DNA of 47,842 nucleotides, taken from the NCBI GenBank assembly GCA_946412355.1, contig CAMKGX010000011.1, forward strand, positions 1 through 47,842, read 5' to 3'. Position 1 is the stretch's first letter, and every line of letters starts with the position of its first letter. This DNA comes from an uncultured Clostridia bacterium (GTDB lineage Bacteria; Bacillota; Clostridia; Oscillospirales; Oscillospiraceae). The notes under the pieces are model-generated. The model saw only the letters and a list, made by a program, of their open reading frames with translations, had not been told where the DNA came from and searched no databases. The position numbers and the translations under genes are program-made. This document shows, piece after piece, positions 103 to 24,336 of this stretch.

Positions 103-1224
103 TTACTTGGCGGCCTTGGCAGCCTTGATGGACTCGATCAGCTCGGGAACAACCTTGAACAGGTCGCCCACGATACCGTAGTCAGCCACCTCGAAGATGG
201 GCGCGGTCTCGTTCTTGTTGACGGCGATGATGCACTCAGACTCCTGCATACCAGCCTTGTGCTGGATGGCGCCGGAGATACCCAGGGCAACGTAGACCTT
301 GGGATGGACGGTCTTGCCGGTCTGGCCAACCTGATGGTCGGCGGTGATCCAGCCGGCGTCCACGCAGGCGCGGGAGGAACCCACGACGCCGCCCAGGACC
401 TCGGCCAGCTCCTCGGCCAGAGCGATACCCTTCTCCACGTCCTTGCTGATGCCGCGGCCCACGGAGACGATGAAGTCAGCGCCGATCAGGTCCACCAGCT
501 TCTTGGCGGCCTTGACGGTCTCGGTGACCTCGGTCTTGATGTCAGAGGCGTTCAGCTCGAAAGCGGGGTGGAGAATCTCCACGTTCTTGGGGCACTCGCG
601 CTTCTTCATCACGCCGGGGCGGACAGTGGCCATGGCGGGACGGAAGCGGGGGCAGATGATGGAGGCCATCAGATGGCCGCCGAAAGCGGGACGGGTCATC
701 TTCAGGTCACGCTCCACGCTGTGGGGCTCGCGGTTGATCATGACGGTGCCCAGCTTCTCGATACGCTCCTCGGGCAGGGTGGAAGCCTCGCGGAGGAAGC
801 CCTTATAGTTGGGCATGTCGATGTCCAGGTGGGTGCAGTCGGCGCACAGGCCGGTGTGCAGGCGGGCAGCGCAGCGGGGGGCCAGGTCACGGCCGATGTT
901 GGAGGCGCCGAAGAGCAGAATCTCGGGCTTGATGTCCTCCACGGCGTCCACGATGACCTTGGTGTAGCCGTCGGTGGTGTAATCCTTCAGCAGGGGGCTG
1001 TTGTAGACGTAAACCTTGTCGGCGCCGTACTGACCCAGCTCGGCGGCGATGCCGTCCACGTTGTCGCCCAGGAGAATGCCGCACAGCTCTACGCCCAGCT
1101 CATTGGCCAGCTTGCGACCCTCGGAGATCAGTTCAAAGGTAGTGGGCATCATGACGCCCTGACGCTGCTCGCAGAAAACCCAAACGTTCTTGAAGGCAGC
1201 GGTATCCGCACTATTAAAAGCCAT
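103..1224 (-). CDS. etfA: Electron transfer flavoprotein subunit alpha
   Basis: Alpha subunit of the cytoplasmic flavoprotein that, with EtfB and Bcd, couples crotonyl-CoA reduction by NADH to ferredoxin reduction (known for clostridial Bcd-Etf). The C-terminal FAD-binding domain is clear: QVGQTGKTVHP, then GISGAIQHKAGM and NETAPIFEVADYGIVGD. The protein is 373 residues, against about 335-340 for typical clostridial EtfA. The excess sits between the LDID and TRPAFGG segments (about residues 137-176) as a charged insertion. The start follows GAAAGGAG. It is the last gene of the operon, 18 bp after etfB. Confidence 0.96.
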   Translation of the reverse strand: MAFNSADTAAFKNVWVFCEQRQGVMMPTTFELISEGRKLANELGVELCGILLGDNVDGIAAELGQYGADKVYVYNSPLLKDYTTDGYTKVIVDAVEDIKPEILLFGASNIGRDLAPRCAARLHTGLCADCTHLDIDMPNYKGFLREASTLPEERIEKLGTVMINREPHSVERDLKMTRPAFGGHLMASIICPRFRPAMATVRPGVMKKRECPKNVEILHPAFELNASDIKTEVTETVKAAKKLVDLIGADFIVSVGRGISKDVEKGIALAEELAEVLGGVVGSSRACVDAGWITADHQVGQTGKTVHPKVYVALGISGAIQHKAGMQESECIIAVNKNETAPIFEVADYGIVGDLFKVVPELIESIKAAKAAK

Positions 1225-1242
1225 TTTCGTTTCTCCTTTCGA

Positions 1243-2043
1243 TCAGATGATGTGCTTGGCGGCCAGGATGCCGGCCAGCTTGTCAGTGGTCTCCTTGCCG
1301 GCGCCCTCGAGCATCATGCCGGCGCCCTTCTGGGGAGGCGTAAAGGAGGTGAGAATATTGGTGGGAGAACCGGCCAGGCCGATAGTGCTCTTGTCGATGA
1401 GGGGATGATCCTTCAGCGTCTCATAGGTCATGGTGACCAGGGGCTTGGAATAGGCCTCGAAAGCGCCGCCCACGGACAGGTAGCGGGGCTCATTCAGCTC
1501 CTTGATGCAGGTGATCATGCAGGGGGTCTTGACCTTGATGGTCATGTAACCGTCCTCCAGGATGCGCTTGACGGTCAGCTCATTGCCGTTCTTGGTGATC
1601 TCACCGGCGTAGGCCACCTGGGGCAGATGCAGCTTCTCGGCGATCTGGGGACCCACCTGGGCGGTATCGCCGTCGATGGCCTGGCGGCCGGCCAGGATGA
1701 TGTCGTCGTCATCGATGCCGTAGGTATCGATACCGGCGGCGATGATCTGGGAGGTGGCGTAGGTGTCGGAGCCGCCGAACTCGCGGGCGGTGATCAGCAC
1801 GCCTTCGTCCACGCCCATGGCCATCAGCTCACGCAGCATGCCCTCGGCGGGAGGGGGACCCATGGTGAAGGCCACCACCTTGCAGCCCAGCTCGTCCTTC
1901 AGCTTCAGGGCGGCCTCAACGGCGTTCAGGTCATCGGGGTTGATGATGGTCTGCATGGACGCACGGTCCAGGGTGCCATCGGGATTCACGGCCACCTTAC
2001 CGGAGGTATCGGGGACCTGCTTAACGGTAACTAAAATCTTCAT
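1243..2043 (-). CDS. etfB: Electron transfer flavoprotein subunit beta
   Basis: Beta subunit of the Etf heterodimer, 266 residues, about the usual length. The N-terminus MKILVTVKQVPDTSG and the motif AGRQAIDGDTAQVGPQ are typical of EtfB. In bifurcating Etfs this subunit carries the FAD that receives electrons from NADH; that role is inferred here from its place next to bcd. The RBS AAGGAGGG overlaps the end of bcd, so the two genes are probably translationally linked. Cytoplasmic. Confidence 0.97.
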   Translation of the reverse strand: MKILVTVKQVPDTSGKVAVNPDGTLDRASMQTIINPDDLNAVEAALKLKDELGCKVVAFTMGPPPAEGMLRELMAMGVDEGVLITAREFGGSDTYATSQIIAAGIDTYGIDDDDIILAGRQAIDGDTAQVGPQIAEKLHLPQVAYAGEITKNGNELTVKRILEDGYMTIKVKTPCMITCIKELNEPRYLSVGGAFEAYSKPLVTMTYETLKDHPLIDKSTIGLAGSPTNILTSFTPPQKGAGMMLEGAGKETTDKLAGILAAKHII

Positions 2044-2062
2044 TTTTCCTTTACCCTCCTTA

Positions 2063-3226
<1,164 letters not shown>

Positions 3227-3254
3227 ACTATTTTCTCCTTTTCTAAATAGTGAT

Positions 3255-4091
3255 TTACTTATTGTAGCTGAAGAAGCCCTCGCCGGACTTGATGCCCAGC
3301 TTGCCGGCGCGCACCATCTTGCGGATCAGCACGTTGGCGCGGTACTTGCTGTCGTGGGTCTCGTTATACAGCACGTCCATGATGTTCAGCACGATGTCCC
3401 AGCCGATGAGGTCGCCCAGGTGCAGGGGGCCCATGGGATGGTTGCAGCCCAGCTGCATGGCGATGTCGATGTCCTCGGCAGAGGCCACGCCCTCCTGCAG
3501 GACGCAGACGCCCTCGTTGCAGTAGGGGATGAGAATCTTGTTGACCACAAAGCCGGGGGCCTCATTGACCACCACAGGGGTCTTGCCGATGTCCTCGGAC
3601 AGCTTCTTGGTCCACTCCACCAGCTCGGCGGGGGTGTTGCCGCCGGCGATGACCTCCACCAGCTTCATAGCGGGGACGGGATTGAAGAAGTGCATACCCA
3701 CCAGGGGGTGCTTCAGGCCCTGGCCCATCTCGGTGATGGACAGAGAAGAGGTGTTGGAGGCGAAGACGGTGCTCTCCTTGCACATCTCGTCCAGCTTGCC
3801 CAGCAGCTCCTTCTTCACGGCCATGTTCTCCGCCACGCACTCGATGACCAGGTCGGCATCGGCGGCGGCCTCGAACTCCTCCACCAGGATGCGGGACATG
3901 ATGTCATCCGCAGCAGCCTGGTCCATCTTGCCCCGGGCCACCTTCTTGTTCAGAGAGGCGGCCAGCTTGTCCTTGTGACGCTGCGCGCTTGCCACGCTGG
4001 AAGCGTACATCAGGGCAGTGTGACCCTTCTGGGCAAATACCTGGGCAATACCGCTGCCCATAGTACCCGCGCCGAAAACAGCGACTTTCAT
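3255..4091 (-). CDS. hbd: 3-hydroxybutyryl-CoA dehydrogenase
   Basis: Interconverts acetoacetyl-CoA and 3-hydroxybutyryl-CoA. The start at 4091 is chosen because TTTTTAGGAGG lies just upstream and the protein then opens MKVAVFGAGTMGSG, the Rossmann GxGxxG; an upstream in-frame start adds 11 unlikely residues. Length 278 residues against about 282. The catalytic histidine is near residue 134 (GMHFFNPVP), and the C-terminal domain has NHPMGPLHLGDLIG. Odd: the second strand ends LMYASS where clostridial Hbd has an acidic residue (RDI), so the cofactor may not be NADH. It lies between crt and bcd; many clostridia place hbd last. Confidence 0.95.
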   Translation of the reverse strand: MKVAVFGAGTMGSGIAQVFAQKGHTALMYASSVASAQRHKDKLAASLNKKVARGKMDQAAADDIMSRILVEEFEAAADADLVIECVAENMAVKKELLGKLDEMCKESTVFASNTSSLSITEMGQGLKHPLVGMHFFNPVPAMKLVEVIAGGNTPAELVEWTKKLSEDIGKTPVVVNEAPGFVVNKILIPYCNEGVCVLQEGVASAEDIDIAMQLGCNHPMGPLHLGDLIGWDIVLNIMDVLYNETHDSKYRANVLIRKMVRAGKLGIKSGEGFFSYNK

Positions 4092-4170
4092 GACGTTTCC
4101 TCCTAAAAATGTTGATTTTGACACTTAATTTTAATCATCAGACGCCGTTTAAGGCCGCCTGTTAATTAAC

Positions 4171-4950
4171 TCACTTGTTCTGGTAGGGCTCGTGCTTCCG
4201 CTTCTCCAGGAAGGCGCCCATGCCCTCTATCTGGTCGGCAGTCTTGAAGCAGCTGCCGAACAGCTTCTCCTCGATGACCACAGCGGCGTCCATATCCACC
4301 TGAAGGCCCTCGTTGATGGCCTTCTTGCAGGCGCGGACGGCGATGGGGGCGTTGGCGGCGATGGTATTGGCCAGCTTCTCCGCCTGGGGCAGCAGCTCCT
4401 CGGCGGGATAGACGGCGTTTACCAAGCCGATGCGGTAGGCCTCGTCGGCCTTGATGTTGCGGGCGGTGTAGATGAGCTGCTTGGCCATGCCGGGGCTCAC
4501 CAGACGGGCCAGACGCTGGGTGCCGCCGAAGCCGGGGGTGATGCCCAGGCCCACCTCGGGCTGACCGAACACGGCGGTGTCGGCGCAGATGCGGATGTCA
4601 CAGGCCATGCTCAGCTCGCAGCCGCCGCCCAGAGCAAAGCCGTTGACTGCGGCGATGGTGGGGATGGGCAGCGTCTCAATGCGGCGGAACACGTCGTTGC
4701 CGTGCTTGCCGAAGGCCTCGCCCTCGGCCGGGGTCAGGGTGCTCATCTCCCCGATATCGGCGCCTGCCACGAAGGCCTTGGCGCCGCTGCCGGTGATGAC
4801 CAGGGCGCGGATATCGCTGTCGGCACGCACCACGTTCACCAGCTCGTCCAGGTCGGTGAGCACGGCGCTGTTCAGTGCGTTCAGCGCCTGGGGGCGGTTG
4901 ATAGTGGCAACGGCGATGTTGCCTTTCTTTTCCAAGAGAACATTTGTCAT
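4171..4950 (-). CDS. crt: 3-hydroxybutyryl-CoA dehydratase (crotonase)
   Basis: Enoyl-CoA hydratase/isomerase family, 259 residues, full length. It dehydrates 3-hydroxybutyryl-CoA to crotonyl-CoA. The CoA oxyanion-hole segment (GAKAFVAGADIGEM, residues 57-70) and both catalytic glutamates are present: E112 in GGGCELSMACD and E132 in GQPEVGLGITPGFGG. The RBS GAGGAGG precedes the ATG. First gene of the operon, read from a strong consensus promoter at 5027-5055. No thiolase gene accompanies the cluster. Confidence 0.95.
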   Translation of the reverse strand: MTNVLLEKKGNIAVATINRPQALNALNSAVLTDLDELVNVVRADSDIRALVITGSGAKAFVAGADIGEMSTLTPAEGEAFGKHGNDVFRRIETLPIPTIAAVNGFALGGGCELSMACDIRICADTAVFGQPEVGLGITPGFGGTQRLARLVSPGMAKQLIYTARNIKADEAYRIGLVNAVYPAEELLPQAEKLANTIAANAPIAVRACKKAINEGLQVDMDAAVVIEEKLFGSCFKTADQIEGMGAFLEKRKHEPYQNK

Positions 4951-12238: not shown

Positions 12239-13597
12239 ATGGCGAAAAAGATTCCCTTTTGGGCGGCCCTGCTGGGGCTCATCCTCACGGCGGGCATCAT
12301 GTTTGTGTGCCTGGTGGTATGGCACAGCCAGCCCCAGATCCCGCTGCTGCTGGGCTGCGGCGTGGCGACGGCCATTGCGCTGCTGTACGGCTGGAAATGG
12401 GAGGACATCTGCCGGGGCATGGTGGACAGCATCAGCCGGTCACTGGAGGCGGTGCTGATTCTGCTGCTTATCGGCGTGCTGGTGGGGGTGTGGATCGCCG
12501 CGGGCACGGTGCCGGCCATGGTGGTGTACGGGCTGCGGCTCATCTCGCCAAGGCTGTTCCTGGCCAGCGCCATGCTGGTGTGTGCCCTGCTGTCCATGGC
12601 CCTGGGCTCCTGGGGCACGGCGGGCACGGTGGGCATCGCCTTCATGGGCATGGCCCGGGCCATGGGCGTGCCGCTGCCTATGGCGGCGGGGGCCGTCATC
12701 TCCGGGGCCTACGTGGGCGACAAGCTCTCCCCTCTGGCGGACTCCACGGTGCTGGCGGCAGCCATGGCGGAAATCGACGTGTTCGACAGTATTCGCAACA
12801 TCGCCAAGGCGGCGCTGCCCACCTTTGCGCTGTGCCTGGGGGCCTACGGTCTGCTGGGCTGGCGGTACGGCGGCGGTGTGGCGGCGGACAGCGCGGCGAC
12901 TATGTCGGACACGCTGCAATCCGCTTTCCGGCTGGGGCTGCCCGCCTTTTTGCCCCTTCTGGTGCTGGTGGGGTGCATCCTGTGCAAAATCCCCGCCATC
13001 CCCAGCCTTTTCCTGGGCTGCGTGGCGGGGGGCGTGTACGCCGTGGCGGTGCAGGGCGCAACGGCGGCGGAGGTGATGGGCTGCGCCTTTGGCGGCTACG
13101 TGGGGCAGACCGGGGTGGCCATGGTGGACCAGCTGTTGACCGCCGGCGGCCTCGCCTCCATGCTGTACTCCGTGTCCATCGTGGTGCTGGCCATGGCCTT
13201 TGGCGGCGTGATGGAAAAGACGGGGCAGATGGAGGTGCTGCTCTCCCCCATCGTTCACCGTCTCCGGGGCTTCGTGCCGCTGATGGCCTGCACGGTGGCC
13301 ACCTGCGCCGCGGTGAACGTGGTGCTGCCGGACCAGTATATCGGCATCGCCCTGCCAGGGCGGATGTACGCCGCCGCCTTTGACCGGGCGGGCATGGAGC
13401 GGCGGGACCTGTCCCTTGCCATCGGCGTGGGCGGGGCGCTGACCTCGGCGCTGGTGCCCTGGAACACCTGCGGCATCTACATGGCCGGGGTGCTGGGGGT
13501 GGCCACGGCGGAATACCTACCCTACACGCTCTATAACCTGGCTATGGTGGCGGCGGCAATCGTGTACGCCGCCGTGCGACAGGCGAGACGGAAATAA
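12239..13597 (+). CDS. nhaC: NhaC family Na+/H+ antiporter
   Basis: Polytopic membrane protein of 452 residues with about eleven hydrophobic segments. The NhaC core motifs are present: GSWGTAGTVGIAFMGMARAMG near residue 123 and AGAVISGAYVGDKLSPLADST near 150, plus VLPDQYIGIALPGRMY and LVPWNTCGIYMAGVLG late in the protein. The family exchanges Na+ with protons or with organic or amino acid substrates. It is convergent with atoDA, so a link to lysine or butyrate handling or to pH homeostasis during ammonia release is possible but unproven. The RBS AAAAGGAAG is about 13 nt upstream. Confidence 0.88.
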   Translation: MAKKIPFWAALLGLILTAGIMFVCLVVWHSQPQIPLLLGCGVATAIALLYGWKWEDICRGMVDSISRSLEAVLILLLIGVLVGVWIAAGTVPAMVVYGLRLISPRLFLASAMLVCALLSMALGSWGTAGTVGIAFMGMARAMGVPLPMAAGAVISGAYVGDKLSPLADSTVLAAAMAEIDVFDSIRNIAKAALPTFALCLGAYGLLGWRYGGGVAADSAATMSDTLQSAFRLGLPAFLPLLVLVGCILCKIPAIPSLFLGCVAGGVYAVAVQGATAAEVMGCAFGGYVGQTGVAMVDQLLTAGGLASMLYSVSIVVLAMAFGGVMEKTGQMEVLLSPIVHRLRGFVPLMACTVATCAAVNVVLPDQYIGIALPGRMYAAAFDRAGMERRDLSLAIGVGGALTSALVPWNTCGIYMAGVLGVATAEYLPYTLYNLAMVAAAIVYAAVRQARRK

Positions 13598-13659: not shown

Positions 13660-14328
13660 TCAGTCCAGCATGGACTTCAGGTTCTCGGCGACGGTGATGG
13701 GGGCGGCGGTGGCGGCCTTCACATCGTCCACGGTGAACTCGGGGTTGATCTCGGTCATGAGCAGGCCCTTATCGGTGACTTCCAGCACGCACATCTCGGT
13801 GATGATCTTGTTGACGCAGTGGGAAGCGGTCAGGGGCAGGCGGCACTTCTCGAAGATCTTGGGGTTGCCCTTGGCGGTGTGCTCCATGCACACGATGCAG
13901 TTGCGGGCGCCCACGCACAGGTCCATGGCGCCGCCCATGCCGGGCATACGCTTGCCGGGGATGATCCAGTTGGCCAGGTTGCCCTGGGCATCCACTTCCA
14001 GAGCGCCCAGGAAGCAGGCGTCCACGTGGCCGCCGCGGATCAGGCCGAAGTTGGTGGCGGAGTCGATGAAGCCGCCGCCGTAGGCCACGGAAGCAACGCC
14101 GCCGCCGGCGTCGATGACGTGGTAGGGGTCGTAGTTGGCATCGCCCTCTTTGGGGGTGGCGCCGGCGGACACGATGCCCAGCTCGGCATGGATGATCAGC
14201 TCAACGCCCTCGGGCAGATAAGCGGGGATCATGGTGGGCAGGCCGATACCCAGGTTGACAACATCGCCGTCCTTCAGCTCTTTGGCGCAGCGCTTGGCAA
14301 TAAAGGCCTTGATCTCAGACTTTTCCAT
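13660..14328 (-). CDS. atoA: Butyryl-CoA:acetoacetate CoA-transferase, beta subunit
   Basis: Family I CoA-transferase subunit B, 222 residues. The conserved glutamate that forms the CoA thioester corresponds to E49 in IIHAELGIVSAG. NLGIGLPTMIPAYLP and PGKRMPGMGGAMDL are typical. With AtoD it moves CoA from butyryl-CoA to acetoacetate, the last step of lysine fermentation, releasing butyrate without ATP cost. The specificity is inferred from the kam/kal neighbours. Its ATG shares one base with the atoD stop (TAATG), implying translational coupling. Confidence 0.93.
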   Translation of the reverse strand: MEKSEIKAFIAKRCAKELKDGDVVNLGIGLPTMIPAYLPEGVELIIHAELGIVSAGATPKEGDANYDPYHVIDAGGGVASVAYGGGFIDSATNFGLIRGGHVDACFLGALEVDAQGNLANWIIPGKRMPGMGGAMDLCVGARNCIVCMEHTAKGNPKIFEKCRLPLTASHCVNKIITEMCVLEVTDKGLLMTEINPEFTVDDVKAATAAPITVAENLKSMLD

Positions 14329-15020
14329 TACTTTCTTTCTCCTTCCACGATGTAGTCAACGCACATGCCGTAGGTGTGGATGTTCTCGGGCTCGATCTCG
14401 CCGACGGGAACGATATACTCGCACTCGGCGATCACGGTGTCGGCAGCGGTGGCCATGACCGTGTTGAAGTTGCGCATGGTGCCCTTGTACCAGCAGTTGC
14501 CGTACTCATCGCACTTATAGGTGCCCAGCAGGGCGAAGTCGCCCCGGATGGGCTTCATCAGCAGGTACTCCTTGCCGTCGATGGTCTGCTTGCCCAGGCA
14601 CAGGGGACTCTGCTCGATGAGCGTATCCACGCCCACGGGGGTCAGCACGCCGCCAAGGCCGGCGCCGCCGGCGCGGACGCACTCGGCCAGGGAGCCCTGG
14701 GGAATCAGGTTGACCTCCAGCGTGCCCTCGGCGCTCTGCTGGCCCACCTCGGGGGTCATGCCCACGTGGGTGGCGATGATGCGCTTGACCTGGTGGTTAT
14801 GAATCAGCTCGGCGATGCCGAAGTACTTCTCGCCCATGGGGCCGGTCTCACGGGCCATATCATTGGCCACCAGAGTCAGATTCTTGGTACCCAGCTTCAC
14901 CAGCTCTTTGACGATTGCGCGGGCCTGACCGCAAGCCAGGAAGCCGCCGCACAGAATGGTGGCGCCTTCCGGGATCATCTTCGCTGCCTCAGCGGCAGTG
15001 AGAACAGGTTTCTTTGCCAT
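14328..15020 (-). CDS. atoD: Butyryl-CoA:acetoacetate CoA-transferase, alpha subunit
   Basis: Family I CoA-transferase subunit A, 230 residues. The N-terminal GATILCGGFLACGQ supplies the CoA-binding loop, and RAGGAGLGGVLTPVGVDT is the family signature. It forms a heteromer with AtoA. The RBS AAGGAGG precedes the ATG. The pair has its own promoter and is separated from kamE by a terminator, so it may be expressed without the lysine switch, for example to release butyrate made from other sources. Confidence 0.93.
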   Translation of the reverse strand: MAKKPVLTAAEAAKMIPEGATILCGGFLACGQARAIVKELVKLGTKNLTLVANDMARETGPMGEKYFGIAELIHNHQVKRIIATHVGMTPEVGQQSAEGTLEVNLIPQGSLAECVRAGGAGLGGVLTPVGVDTLIEQSPLCLGKQTIDGKEYLLMKPIRGDFALLGTYKCDEYGNCWYKGTMRNFNTVMATAADTVIAECEYIVPVGEIEPENIHTYGMCVDYIVEGERK

Positions 15021-15248: not shown

Positions 15249-16037
15249 TTATTTCATGCCGCGCTTGACCATCTCGGTGACCACGAAGCTGGCCACGTCG
15301 TCGCCATAGGTGCCGGCGCCGAAGCCGGCGTCATAGCCCAGCTCCTTGGCCAGCTCATGGGTGATGCGGGGGCCGCCGCAGACCACCACGAACTTATCAC
15401 GCAGGCCCTCGGCCTCCAGCAGCTCGATGAGGTTGGTCAGGTTCTGGATGTGGACATCCTTCTGGGTCACGGTCTGGGACACCAGCAGGGCGTCGGCATG
15501 CAGCTCCACGGCCTTCTTGACGAACTCCTCGTTGGGCACCTGGGAGCCCAGGTTGTAGGCCTCCACCATCTCGTAGCGCTCCACGCCGTAGTGGCCGGCG
15601 AAGCCCTTGCGGTTCATGATGGCGTCGATACCCACGGTATGGGCGTCGGTGCCGGTGGAGGCGCCCACCATGACTACCTTGCGGCCGATGTGCTCCCGGA
15701 TGTAGTCGTTGGTCTCCTCCATGCTCATGACCTCGGACTCCACGGTGATGACGTGGATATCCTCGTAGTTGACGCTGTGGACACAGCTGCCGTACACCAC
15801 GTAGAAGGTAAACTCCTTATCCAGGGGGGCGTGGTAGGCCACGTTGGGCTCTTCCAGACCCATCTTCTTGGCGATCTGGCGGGCGGCTTCCTCGCCCCGG
15901 GCGTCGTCCTTGACGGGCAGGGTGAAGCTGGTCTGCACCTTACCGTCGTTCATGGTGTCGCCGTAGGGCTTCAGGCGGGTCAGGTCCAGCGTGGTATCAA
16001 AATCGATTTTATGGGTGTTATACAGTCCGCTGCTCAT
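15249..16037 (-). CDS. kamE: Lysine 5,6-aminomutase, beta subunit
   Basis: Cobalamin- and PLP-binding subunit of the enzyme converting beta-lysine to 3,5-diaminohexanoate, 262 residues. The base-off B12 motif DxHxxG reads DAHTVG with H133, and K144 in MNRKGF matches the PLP lysine; both agree with the numbering I recall for the Clostridium sticklandii beta subunit. A Rossmann-like B12 domain fills the C-terminal half (VVVCGGPRITHELAKELGYD). Its ATG overlaps the kamD stop by four bases (ATGA), so the subunits are translationally coupled. Confidence 0.96.
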   Translation of the reverse strand: MSSGLYNTHKIDFDTTLDLTRLKPYGDTMNDGKVQTSFTLPVKDDARGEEAARQIAKKMGLEEPNVAYHAPLDKEFTFYVVYGSCVHSVNYEDIHVITVESEVMSMEETNDYIREHIGRKVVMVGASTGTDAHTVGIDAIMNRKGFAGHYGVERYEMVEAYNLGSQVPNEEFVKKAVELHADALLVSQTVTQKDVHIQNLTNLIELLEAEGLRDKFVVVCGGPRITHELAKELGYDAGFGAGTYGDDVASFVVTEMVKRGMK

Positions 16038-17596
16038 TCTCCTGCCACCTTACCTTTCATCTCTTCCACAAAGGGATTGAAGTACTTGTCGTCCTTCACC
16101 ACCACGCCGGCCAGGCCCTTGCCGCCGTCCTTGGGGCGCTTCACGTCGGCGAAGATGCCCTTCTCGATGGTGGTGAACAGGCCCAGGGTCTCGATCTCCT
16201 TCAGGAGGTCGGTGGCCTTCACCAGCACCTCGTTGGCGCGGTTGCGGATGATGCCGTTCTCCTTGTAGGTCAGCTCGCTGCCCAGGTCCTTCATGGTGCG
16301 GAAGATGTACTGGGCGTTCTCGATGGACAGGGCGCGGTCGGACATGAAGGGGGTATGGATGGCCTCGGTCATCATGCCCAGCAGGTGCAGCTTCTGGCCG
16401 GTGAGGATGGTGACCATGTTGAACAGGGCATCCTGGATGTGGCCGCGGAAGATGTTGCCGGTCATGAACTTGGTGGGAGGCATATACTTCAGAGGCGCCT
16501 TGGGGAAAATTTCCCGGGCCATCTGCGCCTGGGCCAGCTCATAGAGGAAGGTGTTCTCCACGGAGGGGTCCATCTCGAAGGCGTGGCCCAGACCCATCTG
16601 CTCCTCACGCATGCCGGCGCTCTTGGCGAAGGCCTCGTTGATGAACTGGGAGGCCAGGACGGTATGGGCGGAGGTGATGGCGTCGTCGGTGGTCAGGTAG
16701 TTATCCTCGCCGGTGTTGATGATGACGCCGGTGTAGCCGTTGATGACGCGGGAGAAGAACTGGTCCACGATGGTGCGCTGCATGTTGATGTCGCGGAACA
16801 GGATGCCGTACAGGGCGTCGTTGAGCATGACGTCCAGGCGCTCCAGAGCGCCCATGGCGGCGATCTCGGGCATGCACAGGCCGGAGCAATAGTTGCACAG
16901 GCGGATGTAGCGGTGCTGCTCCTCGCCCACCTCGTCCAGGGCGGCGCGCATCAGGCGGAAGTTCTCCTGGGTGGCGTAGGTGCCGCCGAAGCCCTCGGTG
17001 GTAGCGCCGTAGGGCACGTAGTCCAGCAGGGACTGGCCGGTGGTGCGGATGACGGCGATGATGTCGGCGCCCTGCTTGGCGCCGGCCTTGGCCTGGATGA
17101 TATCCTCGTAAATATTGCCGGTGGCCACGATGATGTAGAGATACGGGCCTTCCTTGTCGCCAAAGCGGTTCAGGAACTCGTTGCGCTTGGCCACGTTGCC
17201 CTTTATGCGCTCAATGGTCTTGTCCACATAGGGCTTAATGGCGGCGCGGATCTCCGCGTCGGAGTGGGCGGGGACCTTGCTCAGGTCCACATCGCCGGCG
17301 TCGATGGCCTCTGCCACGCCCTGGGGGTCCTTGCCGGTCTCGATGATGGCGTTGCCGATGGTCCAGGCGGCGCCCAGGGGCAGCAGGCCATTGGCCATCA
17401 GGTGGTCCACCAGCACGTTGGGCATGGGGACGTCCATATCGTTGACGCCATCGATGCCCAGCAGACGGCAAACGGCGCGCTCCACCGTGACGGTGGTGTG
17501 CTGGTCGATGAAGCGCTGGGTATCGTCCGCAATCTTGGCGGCGGAGGCCCGGGCCTGATTGACCAGATCAAAATTCAAGCCGAGTTTGCTTTCCAT
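16034..17596 (-). CDS. kamD: Lysine 5,6-aminomutase, alpha subunit
   Basis: Large TIM-barrel subunit of adenosylcobalamin-dependent lysine 5,6-aminomutase, 520 residues, about the family's usual size. The barrel core contains YIIVATGNIYEDIIQAKAGA and LCNYCSGLCMPEIAAMGA, typical of KamD. It pairs with KamE in the cytoplasm. The RBS AGAGGT precedes the ATG. The 84-bp gap after kamA contains a 13-bp GC stem-loop without a U-run. Confidence 0.96.
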   Translation of the reverse strand: MESKLGLNFDLVNQARASAAKIADDTQRFIDQHTTVTVERAVCRLLGIDGVNDMDVPMPNVLVDHLMANGLLPLGAAWTIGNAIIETGKDPQGVAEAIDAGDVDLSKVPAHSDAEIRAAIKPYVDKTIERIKGNVAKRNEFLNRFGDKEGPYLYIIVATGNIYEDIIQAKAGAKQGADIIAVIRTTGQSLLDYVPYGATTEGFGGTYATQENFRLMRAALDEVGEEQHRYIRLCNYCSGLCMPEIAAMGALERLDVMLNDALYGILFRDINMQRTIVDQFFSRVINGYTGVIINTGEDNYLTTDDAITSAHTVLASQFINEAFAKSAGMREEQMGLGHAFEMDPSVENTFLYELAQAQMAREIFPKAPLKYMPPTKFMTGNIFRGHIQDALFNMVTILTGQKLHLLGMMTEAIHTPFMSDRALSIENAQYIFRTMKDLGSELTYKENGIIRNRANEVLVKATDLLKEIETLGLFTTIEKGIFADVKRPKDGGKGLAGVVVKDDKYFNPFVEEMKGKVAGE

Positions 17597-17680: not shown

Positions 17681-18931
17681 TTAGTGCTTGACGTGACGCT
17701 CGTTACGCAGCAGCTTGGTGGGCTCCAAGTAGCGCTGCAGCGTGCCCTCGGCCACCCAGGCCACGCCGGTCTTGTCCACCTTCTTCTTGCCGGTGCAGAC
17801 GTCGCAGTGGCAGTTCTGGACATAGTTGGCAGGCTCGGTGTAGGAGGTGATGACGCCCTCGAAGTTGCGCAGGATCACCTTGCGCGGCGTCTGGGAGATG
17901 AGGTAGTTGGGCATAACGGGGGTCTTGCCGCCGCCGCCGGGAGCGTCCACCACGAAGGTGGGGATGCAGTAGCCGGAGGTATGGCCGCGGAGGGCCTCCA
18001 TGATCTCGATGCCCTTGGACACGGGGGTGCGGAAGTGGCTCAGGCCCAGGGAGGGATCGCAGGCGTAGATGTAGTAGGGACGGACGCGCATCTGCACCAG
18101 GCCGTGGACCAGCTCCATCATCACGTGGGTGCAGTCGTTGACGCCGGCCAGCAGCACGGACTGGTTGCCCAGAGGGATACCGGCATCGGCCAGCATGGCG
18201 CAGGCCTTGGCGGATTCGGGAGAGAACTCCTTGGGGGTGTTGAAGTGGGTGTTGAGCCAGATGGGATGATACTTCTTCAGCATGTTGCACAGCTCGGGGG
18301 TGATACGCTGGGGACACACCACGGGGGTGCGGGAGCCCAGGCGGACGATCTCCACGTGGGGGATGGCGCGAACCTTGCTGATGATGTACTCCAGCGTCTC
18401 GTCGGAAACCATCAGAGCGTCACCGCCGGAGAGCAGCACGTCGCGGACCTCGGGATGGTTGGCCACGTACTCGATGCACTTGTCGATCTGCTGCATGGGC
18501 ACCTCGCAGTCGTTCTGACCGGCGAAGCGGCGACGGGTGCAGTGACGGCAATACATGGAGCACTGGTCGGTGATGAGCAGCAGCACGCGGTCGGGATAGC
18601 GGTGGGTCAGGCCGGGGGTGGGAGAGTCGGTATCCTCGTGGAGGGGATCGGCGTCCTCATAGTCGGCATAATCCAGCTCCTCGGCGCGGGGAATGGCCAT
18701 CTTGCGGATGGGATCGAAGGGATCGTCCAGGTCGATGAGGGACAGATAGTAAGGCGTGACAGCCATGCGCAGCTTGCCCAGGGTCTTGCGGACGCCCTCT
18801 TCCTCATCGGGAGTCAGGGTCATGTACTTCTTCAGGTCCTCCACCGTCTCAGCGCGGTTGTCAACCTGCCAATGCCAGTCGTTCCACAGCTCTTCGGGAA
18901 CATCAGCAAACAGACCGTTACGAGTCTTCAT
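17681..18931 (-). CDS. kamA: Lysine 2,3-aminomutase
   Basis: Radical SAM and PLP enzyme converting L-lysine to L-beta-lysine, 416 residues, full length. The 4Fe-4S cysteines C124, C128 and C131 lie in CSMYCRHC. The PLP lysine is K336 in PGGGGK. The zinc ligands expected from the known structure are C267, C374, C376 and C379. The ATG at 18931 follows AAGGAG by 8 nt; a GTG two codons upstream is less likely. It stands between kdd and kamD, with GC-rich stem-loops on both sides. Confidence 0.96.
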   Translation of the reverse strand: MKTRNGLFADVPEELWNDWHWQVDNRAETVEDLKKYMTLTPDEEEGVRKTLGKLRMAVTPYYLSLIDLDDPFDPIRKMAIPRAEELDYADYEDADPLHEDTDSPTPGLTHRYPDRVLLLITDQCSMYCRHCTRRRFAGQNDCEVPMQQIDKCIEYVANHPEVRDVLLSGGDALMVSDETLEYIISKVRAIPHVEIVRLGSRTPVVCPQRITPELCNMLKKYHPIWLNTHFNTPKEFSPESAKACAMLADAGIPLGNQSVLLAGVNDCTHVMMELVHGLVQMRVRPYYIYACDPSLGLSHFRTPVSKGIEIMEALRGHTSGYCIPTFVVDAPGGGGKTPVMPNYLISQTPRKVILRNFEGVITSYTEPANYVQNCHCDVCTGKKKVDKTGVAWVAEGTLQRYLEPTKLLRNERHVKH

Positions 18932-18979
18932 AATCACTTCTCCTTAAAATGAATAGTGTGAGTGGGATAGGTACGGCAG

Positions 18980-19018: not shown

Positions 19019-20071
19019 TCAGCAATACTTCTCGTCGAACAGCTTGCGCAGCTTGGGATTCTCACGCAGCACATCCAGGGTGATCTGGGCGTGGTTCTTG
19101 GTGTAGCCGTTGCCCACGATCATGGTGACGTCCTTGCCGATACCCTCGGCGCCCAGGGCCGCCTTGGTGAAGGAGGTGGCCATGGAGAAGAAGTACACCA
19201 GGCCGTCGTCGCGGACGGGCAGGATGGCGGACATCTCGCAGGACTCGATGTTGACGCAGCAGATGGACAGGTCGTACTCCTTGCCGCCGGTGACCTTCAG
19301 GGCCTCTTCCATGACCTCAACGGGCTTGGTGCAGTCGGCCACGATGACGTCGGTGTACACGCCCAGCTCCAGCAGAGCGGGGACCTGCTTGGGGTTGCGG
19401 ACAACGCCCACCACCTTGCCGTTGGGACCCACCTTCTTCATGGCCTCCCAGCCGCACAGCACGCCGGACTTGCCGTTGGCGCCCAGGATCAGGACGTTGT
19501 CGCCCTCGTGGGGCAGCTTGCGGGCCTGGGCGGGAGCGCCGGCCACGTCCAGAGCGGCCAGGGCCAGAGCCTCGGACATATCGTCGGGCATCTTGCAGTA
19601 CAGGGCGGACTCGAACAGGATGGCCTTGCCGATGATGTCCACGCGGTCAATGTCCTTGTGGATGGCCAGGATCTTGTCAATCTTCAGGGGGGTCATGGAC
19701 AGGGACACCAGGGAGACGATCTTGTCGCCTTCCTTCAGATCGAAGCCGGGCTTCTTCTTCAGGTCCTCGCCGATGTGGGCCACAACGCCCTTGAACATGC
19801 CGCCGGAGCCGGTGACAGGGTTCTGCTGCTTGCCGCGCTCGGCCACGATGCCCATGATCATCTCGCCGATCTTCTTCTCGTCGCCGCCGCAGGCGTCGGA
19901 GATCTGGGTGAAGGAAGCGGAGTCGATGTTCAGGGAGGTGACGTCGCAGACGATCTCGTTGGAGTAGACCTTGGACATATCGTTGTCGATTTTCCAGGCA
20001 GCCTGGGTCAGAACGCCCTTGGGCTCGATCACGCGGTGGGTACCGTACTTGTTGCCTTTCAGCTCAGCCAT
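19019..20071 (-). CDS. kdd: L-erythro-3,5-diaminohexanoate dehydrogenase
   Basis: NAD-dependent oxidative deamination of 3,5-diaminohexanoate to 3-keto-5-aminohexanoate (family knowledge). At 350 residues it is full length and opens MAELKGNKYGTHRVIEPKG, typical of Kdd. The Rossmann region lies mid-protein: NVLILGANGKSGVLCGWEAM, near residues 190-210. The C-terminal IVGNGYTKNHA segment is also conserved. The RBS AGGAGG precedes the ATG. It follows kce by 47 bp and precedes kamA. Confidence 0.95.
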   Translation of the reverse strand: MAELKGNKYGTHRVIEPKGVLTQAAWKIDNDMSKVYSNEIVCDVTSLNIDSASFTQISDACGGDEKKIGEMIMGIVAERGKQQNPVTGSGGMFKGVVAHIGEDLKKKPGFDLKEGDKIVSLVSLSMTPLKIDKILAIHKDIDRVDIIGKAILFESALYCKMPDDMSEALALAALDVAGAPAQARKLPHEGDNVLILGANGKSGVLCGWEAMKKVGPNGKVVGVVRNPKQVPALLELGVYTDVIVADCTKPVEVMEEALKVTGGKEYDLSICCVNIESCEMSAILPVRDDGLVYFFSMATSFTKAALGAEGIGKDVTMIVGNGYTKNHAQITLDVLRENPKLRKLFDEKYC

Positions 20072-20118: not shown

Positions 20119-20946
20119 TTACTGCAGGGGCTTGAGGGAGAGAATCTCGCGGGCCTCGGCGGGGGTGGCGATTTCGCGGCCCAGCTCCTTGGCCAGGCGC
20201 ACCACCTTGGCCACCAGCTCGCCGTTGGAGGCGGCCTTCTGGCCCTTGCCCAGGTAGACGTTATCCTCGAAGCCCACGCGGACGTTGCCGCCCATGGCGA
20301 TGCCGGCGGCGGCCATGGTCCAGGCGCTGCGGCCCACGCCGGTGACGGTCCAGGTGGAGCCGGCGGGAATCTTGTTCACCAGGAACCACAGGTTCTCCAC
20401 GGTGGCGGGGGTGCAGCCGTTGACGCCCAGCACGAAGTTGAACTGCATGGGGGCGCCGGGCACCTCACCCTTGCGGGCCATGGTGAGGATGGTGTCCAGG
20501 TGGCCGATCTCGAAGCACTCATACTCGGGCTTGATGCCGTTTTCGATCATGCGCTTGCCGAAGGCCCGCATGGTGGGCATGGTGTTGTCGAAAATCTCGT
20601 CGCCGAAGTTGCAGGTGCCGCAGTCCAGGGTGGCCATCTCGGGGAAGAGCTCGGTGGGCTGCAGACGCTCCTCGGGGCTCATGCCGGTGGCGCCGCCGGT
20701 GGAGGGGATCATGATGACGTCGGGCAGCTCCTTGCGGATGGCGTCCATCACCACGCGGAAACGCTCACGGTCCTGGGTGGGGGTGCCGTCGTCCTCGCGG
20801 ACGTGGATGTGCAGAATGGCTGCGCCGGCCTCGTAGGCGGACTTGGCCTCACGGACCATCTCCTCCACGGTGTAGGGCACAGCGGGGTTGGAGGCCTTGG
20901 TGACCTCGGCGCCGCAGATGGCGGCGGTGATAATCAGCTTCTCCAT
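20119..20946 (-). CDS. kce: 3-keto-5-aminohexanoate cleavage enzyme
   Basis: BKACE-family (DUF849) enzyme of 275 residues. It condenses acetyl-CoA with 3-keto-5-aminohexanoate and releases acetoacetate and 3-aminobutyryl-CoA. The zinc-binding histidines H46 and H48 lie in ILHIHVRED and the late acidic ligand is near E227 in VGFEDNVYL. Its place beside kal and kdd makes the Kce assignment safe among the many BKACE specificities. The SD is weak (AGGCAGGG at some distance), and it lies 15 bp after kal. Confidence 0.95.
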   Translation of the reverse strand: MEKLIITAAICGAEVTKASNPAVPYTVEEMVREAKSAYEAGAAILHIHVREDDGTPTQDRERFRVVMDAIRKELPDVIMIPSTGGATGMSPEERLQPTELFPEMATLDCGTCNFGDEIFDNTMPTMRAFGKRMIENGIKPEYECFEIGHLDTILTMARKGEVPGAPMQFNFVLGVNGCTPATVENLWFLVNKIPAGSTWTVTGVGRSAWTMAAAGIAMGGNVRVGFEDNVYLGKGQKAASNGELVAKVVRLAKELGREIATPAEAREILSLKPLQ

Positions 20947-20961: not shown

Positions 20962-21363
20962 TTACTTCTCAATGGGCTTGCGCTGGCAGTCCTTGGGGGT
21001 GACGCAGGTGCCGTGGGCGCGGCAGACCACGATGGGCTCGGCCAGAACGTCGGCGGCGGAGGCGCTGATGTCGGGGCGGGAGACGATGACCTTGCGGGCC
21101 TCGAACTTCATGGTGCGGGAGGTGTTGCCGATCTTCTCGATCTCGCCGTAGGCCTCGATGTAGTCGCCGGCATAGACAGGAGCCAGGAACTCGATGTTGT
21201 CGTAAGCGCAGAACAGGCCCTCATCGCCGTCGCACATGATGAGGAGCTCGGTGGCCACGTCGCCGAACAGGTGCACCATGTGGGCGCCGTCCACCAGGTT
21301 GCCGCCGTAGTGGGCGTCCTTGGCGCTCATGCGCAGCCGCAGCAGGGATGTCATCTTTTCCAT
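20962..21363 (-). CDS. kal: 3-aminobutyryl-CoA ammonia-lyase
   Basis: Hotdog-fold enzyme of 133 residues that eliminates ammonia from 3-aminobutyryl-CoA to give crotonyl-CoA. Recognised by [20 protein letters not shown] and the late [12 protein letters not shown]. The start at 21363 follows AAGGAGG; the frame runs open 38 codons upstream through the leader terminator, which cannot be coding. First gene of the lysine operon, about 300 nt downstream of its promoter and under control of the lysine aptamer in that leader. Confidence 0.94.
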
Positions 21364-21436: not shown

Positions 21437-21483
21437 AAAAATAACAAAAGGGCGCCATCGGTCACTGCTATGACCAATAGCGC
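21437..21483 (-). terminator. Leader terminator of the lysine operon (riboswitch expression platform)
   Basis: On the minus strand, GCGCTATTGGTCA (21483-21471) pairs fully (with G-U pairs) with TGACCGATGGCGC (21464-21452) around a 6-nt loop, followed by TTTTGTTATTTTT. The 5' arm contains CTATTG, the 3' strand of aptamer helix P1, so the two folds exclude each other. Confidence 0.88.
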
Positions 21484-21641
21484 TCCATGTCACAAAGGGC
21501 ATGACAACAGTGCCGCTTACACGGCGCTGCCAAGGACGCGGCTCGGGCACGCCGCCCCCCTTCGGCGGAGCGCCCCTTCCCTGCCGGCCATCAAGGGCCG
21601 TACCTCATCCGACAGGTACCCTGCACTCCGCGCCTCTATTG
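21475..21641 (-). promoter_or_regulatory. Lysine riboswitch (L-box) aptamer, predicted ON switch
   Basis: Core segments of the lysine aptamer appear in order on the minus strand: AGAGGCGCG (21637-21629), GCCGAAGG (21566-21559) with its partner CCTTGGCAG, CACTGT (21512-21507), a TGTCA/TGACA stem, and GGAGCGCTATTG (21486-21475). P1 is CAATAG (21641-21636) with CTATTG (21480-21475). Because that 3' strand is also part of the terminator 5' arm, ligand-stabilised P1 should prevent termination and turn on lysine degradation. Confidence 0.88.
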
Positions 21642-21667
21642 CATATATCGAATTGTCTACACCCAAA

Positions 21668-21695
21668 ATTATAGCTTTTTTCCCGCTTTTGTCAA
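21668..21695 (-). promoter_or_regulatory. Promoter of the kal-kce-kdd-kamADE operon
   Basis: Minus-strand TTGACA (21690-21695), 16-bp spacer, TATAAT (21668-21673). Transcription would begin near 21661, about 20 nt before aptamer P1. Confidence 0.8.
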
Positions 21696-21803: not shown

Positions 21804-23264
21804 TTAATAGCTCTGCTCTATCTTGTCTAAAATCTCCGGCTTGAGAGAGAGCATGCGGCAGATGTTCAGGGCGTCCCGGGGGCAGTCGGACTTGCCCTCC
21901 ACCCGGTAGAGGCCGTAGTTCATGTGGCGGGCGATAACGGCCACGCCGTCCTCGCCGGTGGCGGACAATTCCCGGCGGATAGCCTGGGGGTCCACGTCCC
22001 GGAGACCGATAATCTGATAGTGGGCCCGGGCGCAGTCGGCCACCTTGTCGTAGTGGGTGGTGAGCAGGGAGATGGCGTGGACGTCGTTCAAATACCGGGT
22101 GACGGCCTGGACGATAACGGCGCCCTCGTCGGGGTTGGTGCCCCGGGCGAACTCATCCAGCAGGAACAGGGAGTAGCCCTGCTCCACCTCATTCAGCGCC
22201 TTTTCAAACTGGACGATCTCGCTGCCGAAGCCGCTGAGGCCGGATTGGATGGACTGGAGGTCGTCAAAGAGCATCTTCACCGTGTGGAACAGGGGCATGC
22301 GGGCCTCCCGGGCGCACACCAGGAAACCGGCGTGGAGCAGCAGCACGTTCAGGGCCACGGTCTTCATGGCCACGGATTTGCCGCCCATGTTGGCGCCGGT
22401 GATGACGGTGGCGCCCTGGTCCAGGGCCACGGACACGGGCACAAAGGCACGGTGCTGCTCCGAGAGCAGGTCCACCAGCTCCGGGTTCACCATGTCGGTG
22501 AGGGTCAGCTCCGTCTCCGTAATGGTGGGGCGGACGCCGCCGTAGCGCACGGCGAACAGGGCCTTTTGCAGCATAAAGTCCAGACGGCCCACCGCCTCGG
22601 CGTCGGCAAGCAGGTCATCCGCCATAGGGGCAAGGGCCGCGCCCATGGCCTTCCGCACCTTCATCTCCTCGCTCTCCTCCTCGGCGCAGATGCGGGTGCG
22701 TTTGAGGCGCAGGTCGTCCTTTTCCCCGTCGGTTCGGGCGTGGTAAAGGTGCTCCTCCACGTCCTTCTTGGCCTGGCGGATCTCTTTCAGGCGGGCGGTG
22801 GCGCTGTCGGGAATGTAGAAGCCCCGGCTGCCGGTGCCCTCCGGGTCAAGAATGGCCAGGGCAGGGGCAGGGTCGTGGAAGGAAAGGTTCTCAAAATGCA
22901 CCAGGGCGTCCGCCTGGGCGAACAGGGGCCGCAACCCCTCCAGCCGCTGGAGATAGCCCTTTATTTCAAATAATTCCACATGGTCGGGAGTCTCCCCGTC
23001 ACGGCAGCGGCGGAGACTGGTGCGGATGTCCTTGATCTGGCACAGCAGCACCATGATTTTATCGTAGGTCTCTTTTAACTCCCCTGCGGCCCGGGCGCAG
23101 CGCTCCACGTTGCCCAGCTCCACGTCCAGCTCGTCACGTTCCGCCGGGGTGTAGAACCGCAGCTTCCGGATTTTCTCCTGGCCGAAGGGGGAGCAGCCGT
23201 GGAGCGCCTCCAAGGCGTATTGCAGGCCGATTTTCACTTTTTCGTCAAAGGTGACGGTAATCAT
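21804..23264 (-). CDS. kamC: MutS-like ATPase of the lysine fermentation cluster (KamC)
   Basis: Protein of 486 residues with the MutS ATPase domain but without the N-terminal mismatch-binding and connector domains. Walker A is TGANMGGKSV, near residue 290; Walker B and flanks read LFLLDEFARGTNPDEGA, and LLTTHYDKVADC resembles the late MutS histidine motif. The N-terminal half is helical and MutS core/lever-like. In lysine- and ornithine-fermenting anaerobes such a gene sits beside the aminomutase genes and is thought to help maintain or reactivate the B12 enzyme; DNA repair is unlikely. Its start overlaps the kamB stop (ATGA). Confidence 0.85.
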   Translation of the reverse strand: MITVTFDEKVKIGLQYALEALHGCSPFGQEKIRKLRFYTPAERDELDVELGNVERCARAAGELKETYDKIMVLLCQIKDIRTSLRRCRDGETPDHVELFEIKGYLQRLEGLRPLFAQADALVHFENLSFHDPAPALAILDPEGTGSRGFYIPDSATARLKEIRQAKKDVEEHLYHARTDGEKDDLRLKRTRICAEEESEEMKVRKAMGAALAPMADDLLADAEAVGRLDFMLQKALFAVRYGGVRPTITETELTLTDMVNPELVDLLSEQHRAFVPVSVALDQGATVITGANMGGKSVAMKTVALNVLLLHAGFLVCAREARMPLFHTVKMLFDDLQSIQSGLSGFGSEIVQFEKALNEVEQGYSLFLLDEFARGTNPDEGAVIVQAVTRYLNDVHAISLLTTHYDKVADCARAHYQIIGLRDVDPQAIRRELSATGEDGVAVIARHMNYGLYRVEGKSDCPRDALNICRMLSLKPEILDKIEQSY

Positions 23265-24190
23265 GTAAGCTCCTCCTTCACGTTGATCACCGGGGCGTCC
23301 ACCGCCTCGGACATGGCCGCCATAAAGGCGTCTTTGTCAAACCGCCAGCCGTAGGCGGACACGGGGTTCACGGTGACGCACAGGGTGCGGGCGGACTGGG
23401 CCGTCTCCAGGCGGACGTCCCGCAGGGCCAGCTTATCCAGAGTGTCGGCGGTGAGCAGGACCTTACTGGGGTCCAGCACCACGATGCGGCCCCGGCGCAG
23501 CACGCCGCCTTTCAGCAGCGGCACCACCATGGTGTCGGTGAGGGCGCCGGTGACCAGCGCTTCCCCGTTTTTCTTGAAGTCCTCCTCCAGGCCCTCCCCT
23601 GCCGCCGGGATGGTCTCCGCCTTGGGCAGATTCATCAGCCGGTAGATGTGGGCGGTGTCGGCCACCACCTTTTCCATGCTCATGTTGTAGCTGGCGCCGG
23701 TGCAGAGGATGACCCCCTCCGCCACGGCCCGGGCCCCCAGGCTTTTGCGGCCCAGAGCGCCGTCGATGACGGACTGGCAGGCCCCCAGGTCGAAAAAGTG
23801 GCGGGACACGGTTTGGAGCTGGGTGGTGATGGAGGGGCCGGCCAACTGCACGTAGCCATCGCTGCGGGCGCGGAGGATCACCACCTCGCCGATGGGTGTG
23901 GGGATGCCGGTGGTCATGACGATTTCCTTCGTCACGTCGCACAGCCGCAGCATATCCCTGGCGGTGGCAATCAGCGTGCCGGCGGGCACGTAGATGCTGG
24001 GCTTTTCCGTGCCGGTGACCACGTCGGTGGATTCGCCGTCACGGCCGATGGAGGTCAGGCCCAGCACGCTGTCCCGGCGGCTGTGGTGCAAAAACCAGTT
24101 CAGCACCGTGGTTTTGCCCGCATTTTTGCACATGCCCACAATGGACATGGTTTTCACGCTGTGGAGATCCTGCAGCAAGGCGTCCGTCAT
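23261..24190 (-). CDS. kamB: P-loop protein of the lysine fermentation cluster (KamB)
   Basis: Protein of 309 residues with an N-terminal P-loop, SIVGMCKNAGKTTVLNWF (GxxxxGKT), and segments such as ICTGASYNMSMEKVVADTAH found in KamB-like proteins. Known gene clusters in Clostridium sticklandii and fusobacteria pair it with the MutS-like KamC and the aminomutase genes; a joint chaperone or reactivase role for lysine 5,6-aminomutase is inferred. The start at 24190 follows AAAGGAG, removing 27 upstream codons. I see no convincing promoter or riboswitch before it; a TATGAT at 24234-24239 lacks a -35. Confidence 0.82.
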   Translation of the reverse strand: MTDALLQDLHSVKTMSIVGMCKNAGKTTVLNWFLHHSRRDSVLGLTSIGRDGESTDVVTGTEKPSIYVPAGTLIATARDMLRLCDVTKEIVMTTGIPTPIGEVVILRARSDGYVQLAGPSITTQLQTVSRHFFDLGACQSVIDGALGRKSLGARAVAEGVILCTGASYNMSMEKVVADTAHIYRLMNLPKAETIPAAGEGLEEDFKKNGEALVTGALTDTMVVPLLKGGVLRRGRIVVLDPSKVLLTADTLDKLALRDVRLETAQSARTLCVTVNPVSAYGWRFDKDAFMAAMSEAVDAPVINVKEELT

Positions 24191-24336
24191 ACCACCACTC
24201 CTTTTCCTTCGCTTCGTTCCAATGGATAATGTTATCATACGCCGCCGAAAAAAGAAACCCCCGGCGGACACATATTTTTGCCCTGTGGCGCAAATACTCC
24301 ACAGGAACGATTTTTCACCAAAAAGGAGGGCTGGCC

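What the first reader, a model, noticed from the sequence alone, without database searches (positions are those of the whole stretch)
21437..21695. Lysine riboswitch wired as an ON switch for the lysine-to-butyrate operon
Seen: lysine-aptamer core elements in order, a P1 helix CAATAG/CTATTG, and a terminator whose 5' arm (21471-21483) includes the P1 3' strand (21475-21480). Known: lysine aptamers usually repress biosynthesis or uptake by allowing terminator formation when P1 closes. Inferred: here P1 closure destroys the terminator, so lysine should induce its own fermentation (kal-kce-kdd-kamADE). From memory, activating L-boxes before lysine catabolic genes were proposed by comparative genomics in a few other anaerobes, so the class may not be wholly new. 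A worked example on a full butyrate-forming operon would still be valuable.
Basis: partly seen in the sequence, partly recalled or inferred. Interest (0 to 1): 0.85.

Follow-up and report, generated by a model that had tools for sequence, protein, structure and literature searches.

The report
Lysine-activated switch for lysine fermentation
In a gut-type bacterium, an RNA sensor for the amino acid lysine appears wired to switch on, rather than off, the genes that ferment lysine towards butyrate; this kind of switch was proposed before, and relatives with the sensor beside these genes show the same wiring.

Summary
Rfam's lysine model matches 21646-21470 (minus) at 97.1 bits, E 1.3e-24, behind a 12-of-12 sigma-70 promoter. 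The P1 3' strand (21480-21475) lies inside the 5' arm of a 13-pair terminator (21483-21471/21464-21452), so P1 and terminator exclude each other. Downstream come kal, kce, kdd, kamA, kamD, kamE, then CoA-transferase genes.

Comparison supports the ON reading: 39 of 39 classified L-boxes beside lysine-fermentation genes have this wiring. Of 149 others, 6 were flagged by the same rule and look like OFF antiterminators on inspection. The kind is not new: papers propose positive control of kal/kce by L-boxes and ON logic through buried terminator strands.

Not found in print: ON L-boxes share an altered aptamer periphery (one P2-loop base is G in 45 of 45, against 1 of 180 others). In relatives, not in the window, 14 of 39 carry a second copy of the aptamer's 3' strand, 13 of them with a second terminator hairpin. 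Lysine induction itself is untested.

The parts
21668..21695 (-). sigma-70-type promoter, TTGACA, 16-base spacer, TATAAT
   Evidence: 12 of 12 consensus matches; 1 found, 0.3 expected in shuffles
21470..21646 (-). lysine riboswitch aptamer
   Evidence: RF00168, 97.1 bits, E 1.3e-24
21636..21641 (-). P1 5' strand CAATAG
   Evidence: Rfam alignment; six Watson-Crick pairs with 21480-21475
21475..21480 (-). P1 3' strand CTATTG, shared with the terminator 5' arm
21471..21483 (-). terminator 5' arm GCGCTATTGGTCA
21452..21464 (-). terminator 3' arm TGACCGATGGCGC
21437..21451 (-). U-rich tract CCTTTTGTTATTTTT
   Evidence: read; tail listed
20962..21363 (-). kal, 3-aminobutyryl-CoA ammonia lyase (start chosen at the ATG behind AAGGAGG)
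   Evidence: NF052388, 192.3 bits against cut-off 160
20119..20946 (-). kce, 3-keto-5-aminohexanoate cleavage enzyme
   Evidence: NF052387, 420.6 bits against cut-off 382
19019..20071 (-). kdd, 3,5-diaminohexanoate dehydrogenase
   Evidence: NF052381, 249.9 bits against cut-off 200
17681..18937 (-). kamA, lysine 2,3-aminomutase
   Evidence: TIGR03820, 594.7 bits against cut-off 525.4
16034..17596 (-). kamD, lysine 5,6-aminomutase alpha subunit
   Evidence: NF052384, 909.9 bits against cut-off 600
15249..16037 (-). kamE, lysine 5,6-aminomutase beta subunit
   Evidence: NF052385, 408.9 bits against cut-off 280
14328..15020 (-). 3-oxoacid CoA-transferase subunit A
   Evidence: TIGR02429, 180.4 bits against cut-off 128.5
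13660..14328 (-). 3-oxoacid CoA-transferase subunit B
   Evidence: TIGR02428, 270.2 bits against cut-off 243.55

Best explanation
A transcriptional lysine-ON riboswitch drives the lysine-fermentation operon from its own promoter. Without lysine the nascent leader folds the terminator at 21483-21452 and transcription stops at the U tract. When lysine binds, P1 closes; its 3' strand is then unavailable to the terminator 5' arm, RNA polymerase reads through, and kal-kce-kdd-kamA-kamD-kamE (probably also the CoA-transferase genes) are made. Because the terminator is far more stable than P1, the choice must be made kinetically while polymerase passes. Shown: aptamer, promoter, mutually exclusive pairings, gene content, conservation of the wiring. 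Inferred: lysine binding, direction and size of the effect, extent of the transcript.
For: Covariance hit; promoter; P1 3' strand wholly inside the terminator arm, and the observed hairpin energy reached by 0 of 500 shuffles. ON wiring in 31 of 31 L-boxes sharing a locus with kal and in 8 of 8 more that precede kce or kdd; in 5 of 5 further L-boxes before kce; and in 12 of 13 L-boxes found among 80 named kal loci, some of them the same genomes (the thirteenth, L296, pairs 4 of 6 P1 bases). In those sets several P1 3' strands occur (CTATTG, CTATTT, CTATTC and others) and the terminator 3' arm generally follows them. 35 of 38 kal-bearing family genomes have such an L-box by my reading (G354 by a contig that ends after the switch, G381 before kce). 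All 9 kal-bearing genomes of the window's genus that were searched have exactly one L-box, the one before kal. Of 42 columns at least 93% conserved in 149 non-ON L-boxes, 32 are kept in at least 33 of 39 ON ones, including the P1-flanking AGAGG, GCCGA, TGTC and GCT stretches.
Against: No experiment. The nearest-neighbour model without ligand gives P1 a probability of at most 0.07 even before the terminator can form, and favours the terminator by 16.2 kcal/mol in the full leader. Ten of 42 conserved aptamer columns are changed in the ON group, so affinity could differ. Outside the family the link is a minority: only 6 of 77 kal-bearing genomes drawn from the phylum had an L-box near the fermentation genes (read), and G030, G132 and G390 of the 38 family genomes had none. 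My rule also flagged one L-box without such genes, G783o.
Confidence: 0.86

Rival explanations
1. An ordinary lysine-OFF L-box that by chance stands before catabolic genes, with an antiterminator that I have missed.
For: Most L-boxes of the family are of that type: 137 of 146 others have a terminator clear of P1.
Against: In the window the scan of the 300-odd bases after P1 found no second terminator, and the only one contains the P1 3' strand. In the OFF type the P1 3' strand pairs with the 5' arm of a later terminator, as seen for example in L106 and the asd group.
Confidence: 0.05
2. The aptamer variant senses something other than L-lysine, for example an intermediate such as beta-lysine.
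For: The ON group has a changed P2 internal loop and L4 loop.
Against: The junction-side conserved columns are unchanged. That these line the ligand pocket is recalled, not tested.
Confidence: 0.05
3. A degenerate L-box that no longer switches: the terminator always wins and the operon is read from elsewhere.
For: Terminator strongly favoured in the ligand-free model.
Against: Aptamer core and both alternative pairings are kept across genera, 39 of 39.
Confidence: 0.04

Closest known systems
L-boxes before kal/kce in Clostridium sticklandii, Fusobacterium nucleatum, Thermoanaerobacter tengcongensis and T. wiegelii (PMC5584792; passages seen)
   Same: Lysine aptamer before lysine-degradation genes, stated to be positively regulated.
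   Different: The passages I saw show no expression-platform sequence, and a find for terminator or antiterminator terms in that paper gave none. The window operon is fuller: kal-kce-kdd-kamADE.
Lysine riboswitches with ON logic that bury terminator strands (PMC2258182; passages, citing Rodionov 2003, which is not held)
   Same: Same stated mechanism.
   Different: No particular example is given in the passages I saw.
pbuE-type adenine ON riboswitch (recalled)
   Same: Ligand closes P1, whose 3' strand is otherwise part of the terminator; kinetic control.
   Different: Different aptamer and ligand.
B. subtilis lysC L-box, OFF type (recalled)
   Same: Same aptamer class.
   Different: P1 closure there frees a terminator instead of destroying it.

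Membership tests
Lysine riboswitch (RF00168) | Covariance-model score above gathering threshold over the full model | tested here: met
   97.1 bits against 30, positions 1-182
Lysine riboswitch (RF00168) | Conserved junction-side bases of the aptamer | tested here: met
   AGAGG, GC, GCCGA, TGTC and G.GCT columns kept in the window and in 39 of 39 ON L-boxes
Lysine riboswitch (RF00168) | Canonical P2 loop (AGTA with GAAAGG) and canonical L4 loop | tested here: not met
   Window has GGTA with GAAGG and a GTAA-type L4; a variant periphery. PMC2258182 (passage) notes lysine aptamers lacking the K-turn, so this does not by itself exclude membership
Lysine riboswitch (RF00168) | Selective binding of L-lysine | not testable with these tools
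   needs in-line probing or calorimetry
Transcriptional ON riboswitch | P1 3' strand forms part of the terminator 5' arm | tested here: met
   6 of 6 P1 3' bases
Transcriptional ON riboswitch | Ligand raises read-through | not testable with these tools
   needs a transcription assay
Lysine fermentation (KamA/KamDE/Kdd/Kce/Kal) operon | All six enzymes encoded together downstream | tested here: met
   NCBIfam equivalogs above cut-off
Butyrate-forming pathway | Reduction of crotonyl-CoA and CoA transfer | tested here: inconclusive
   CoA-transferase genes follow; the genome's only acyl-CoA dehydrogenase hit, with ETF genes, lies at 103-3226 of the same window, outside the operon. NCBIfam names the ETF subunits acryloyl-CoA reductase, and the dehydrogenase is below that cut-off

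The most novel reading that the evidence does not exclude
L-boxes of lysine-fermentation genes are a distinct lysine-aptamer subtype with a re-tuned periphery, and in several genera one aptamer body serves two successive terminators: a duplicated 3' strand (P5 3' side, junction bases, P1 3' side) can replace the first after polymerase has passed terminator 1, so that lysine is checked twice. The window's element belongs to the subtype but has no duplicated strand. Evidence: loop base G in 45 of 45 ON against 1 of 180 others; second copy in 14 of 39 ON against 0 of 149 others, shuffles 0.025; in 17 examined copies P1 pairing in 95 of 102 cells (82 Watson-Crick; permutation mean 76.0, reached in 32 of 5000) and P5 pairing in 68 of 68 cells, half of them fixed by the search motif.
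Probability: 0.3. Interest if true: 0.75.

Novelty: new member of a known kind. Interest (0 to 1): 0.5.

Why it matters
Natural lysine-ON switches have been proposed from comparative genomics, but in my ten searches of the held library I saw no experimental test of one. This window gives a clean case to test: strong promoter, compact terminator, complete pathway, and many relatives with the same wiring. The comparison also makes a general question testable: whether catabolic switches carry aptamers tuned to higher ligand levels than biosynthetic ones of the same class, here through the P2 and L4 periphery rather than the pocket.

Tried and rejected
Rejected: OFF logic (no terminator clear of P1 found in the window). 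Rejected as proof of ON: six of 146 other L-boxes flagged by my rule (L003, L014, L018, L035, L123, L125). For five a separate downstream hairpin was found on recheck; for L035 I saw it only by eye in the printed sequence. G783o was flagged and not resolved; it has no fermentation gene by tblastn. L033 was unclear and L042 and L110 had no terminator; L033 has one on recheck.

A first, looser ON score caught antiterminators as well and was replaced by the rule. A single clade of all 45 ON aptamers (support 0.997) did not survive masking of P1, the 3' strand, the P2 loop and L4: the best clade then held 31 ON of 40 members, so I do not claim a single origin.

A search for a second copy of the 3' strand in the window gave only an 11-of-15 match inside the terminator itself, so no duplicated strand is claimed there. 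The tree and permutation tests do not control for relatedness of the genomes.

Full report
What is there. On the minus strand a perfect-consensus promoter (21695-21668) precedes a lysine riboswitch aptamer (21646-21470, 97.1 bits). P1 (21641-21636/21480-21475) shares its whole 3' strand with the 5' arm of a terminator (21483-21471/21464-21452) followed by a U-rich tract. kal starts at 21363 behind AAGGAGG, and kce, kdd, kamA, kamD, kamE and two CoA-transferase genes follow. Upstream, separated by a terminator-like hairpin (21769-21745), lie kamC and kamB, the aminomutase reactivase genes. The genome has no other L-box.

Folding. In the 225-base leader the minimum-energy fold (-105.6 kcal/mol) contains the terminator; forcing P1 gives -89.4. 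Along the transcript the terminator reaches probability 1.0 once 21450 is made, and P1 never exceeds 0.07 in this ligand-free, tertiary-free model. The switch can therefore work only if lysine binding holds P1 closed while polymerase passes. That is an inference.

Wiring in relatives. RF00168 was found in 160 of 200 family genomes. I classified 150 L-boxes from there (149 of the listed places, transcribed by hand, plus the window's; more matches existed but were not listed) and added kal-bearing genomes: kal passes its cut-off in 38 of 400 family genomes and 78 of 398 phylum genomes, the window's included in both. RF00168 was then sought in those 38 and in the other 77. Result of the rule: 31 of 31 L-boxes sharing a locus with kal are ON. 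Of 11 others from those genomes 8 are ON, and those 8 precede kce or kdd. Of the 146 remaining family L-boxes, 137 have a terminator clear of P1, 6 were flagged ON, 1 was unclear and 2 had none; tblastn with Kal, Kce, Kdd and KamA hit none of the 146. Their first downstream genes fall into a few clusters that I read by eye, without a family search, as solute-binding proteins and other transport genes, dapA-like, asd-like and lysA-like genes. A further 37 L-boxes: 5 of 5 before kce are ON; G354o is ON with kamC upstream, but its contig ends soon after; of the other 31, none has a fermentation gene and one (G783o) was flagged. Among 80 named kal loci, 13 have an L-box and 12 pass the rule. Many of the 80 are titled Bacteroidales and none of those had a hit in that scan.

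Limits. Outside the family only 6 of 77 kal-bearing genomes have an L-box by the fermentation genes (G782, G429, G470, G651, G709, G752), and 39 of 77 have any. In the family 35 of 38 do; G030, G132 and G390 do not. The counts are of genomes, not independent events.

Aptamer subtype. Of 42 columns at least 93% conserved in 149 non-ON L-boxes, 32 are kept in at least 33 of 39 ON ones and 10 are not. The changes lie mainly in the P2 internal loop (AGTA with GAAAGG becomes GGTA with GAAGG or GAATG) and in L4 and its stem. At the diagnostic position G occurs in 45 of 45 ON and in 1 of 180 others. PMC2258182 (passages) notes lysine aptamers lacking the K-turn; I saw no mention of a link with ON logic, and PMC5584792 contains none of the words kink, sarcin, loop E or variant. 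All ON aptamers form one clade in the full alignment but not in the masked one.

Duplicated 3' strand. In 14 of 39 ON L-boxes, and in 0 of 149 others, a strict copy of the aptamer's 3' segment follows 15-145 bases downstream (shuffles 0.025 of 39). In 13 of the 14 a second terminator hairpin follows (G276 is the exception). Seventeen copies (including looser ones and L301) can pair with the single P1 5' strand in 95 of 102 cells and with P5 in 68 of 68. G709 and G752 instead carry two full aptamers, each with its own ON terminator; double lysine riboswitches are already described (PMC9481103, passage, 14 doubles). The window has no such copy. That one aptamer serves two terminators in turn is my inference.

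Known or new. Positive control of kal/kce by L-boxes is stated in PMC5584792 (passages, citing a review that is not held). ON lysine logic is stated in PMC2258182 (passages). The window is therefore a new, well-equipped member of a known kind. The subtype and the duplicated strand are not in what I saw of the held library.

Noticed in passing
L210, L154, L156, L159, L166, L168 (G074, G206, G287, G352, G378, G150); L214, L215, L216, L217, L220, L222; L211; L301: A second copy of the aptamer 3' strand followed by a second terminator after the first ON terminator: possibly one aptamer serving two terminators.
   Followed up: partly
L211 (G709) and L212 (G752): Two complete lysine aptamers in tandem, each with its own ON-type terminator, before kdd and about 6 kb before kal.
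   Followed up: partly
window 21618-21623, 21574-21576 and 21517-21519, and ON L-boxes of relatives: ON L-boxes share a changed P2 internal loop and L4 loop while junction-side bases are kept.
   Followed up: partly
L062, L173, L169, L179 and L177, just after terminator 1: In several relatives of the same genus the terminator 3' arm plus U tract is complementary to a stretch just downstream; seen by eye, absent from the window.
   Followed up: no
window 21804-24271: kamC and kamB (lysine 5,6-aminomutase reactivase) lie directly upstream of the switch on the same strand; KamC-like genes also precede many of the relatives' L-boxes.
   Followed up: partly
window 103-4950: The genome's only acyl-CoA dehydrogenase hit with two ETF genes, an hbd-like and a crt-like gene on the same strand; NCBIfam names the ETF subunits acryloyl-CoA reductase subunits.
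   Followed up: partly
window 12239-13597: An NhaC-type antiporter gene convergent with the operon (Pfam Na_H_antiporter; NhaC model just below its cut-off); a candidate lysine transporter.
   Followed up: no
L330-L334: Unusually short lysine aptamers (about 150 bases) in genomes of one other family that also carry kal elsewhere; not near fermentation genes.
   Followed up: no
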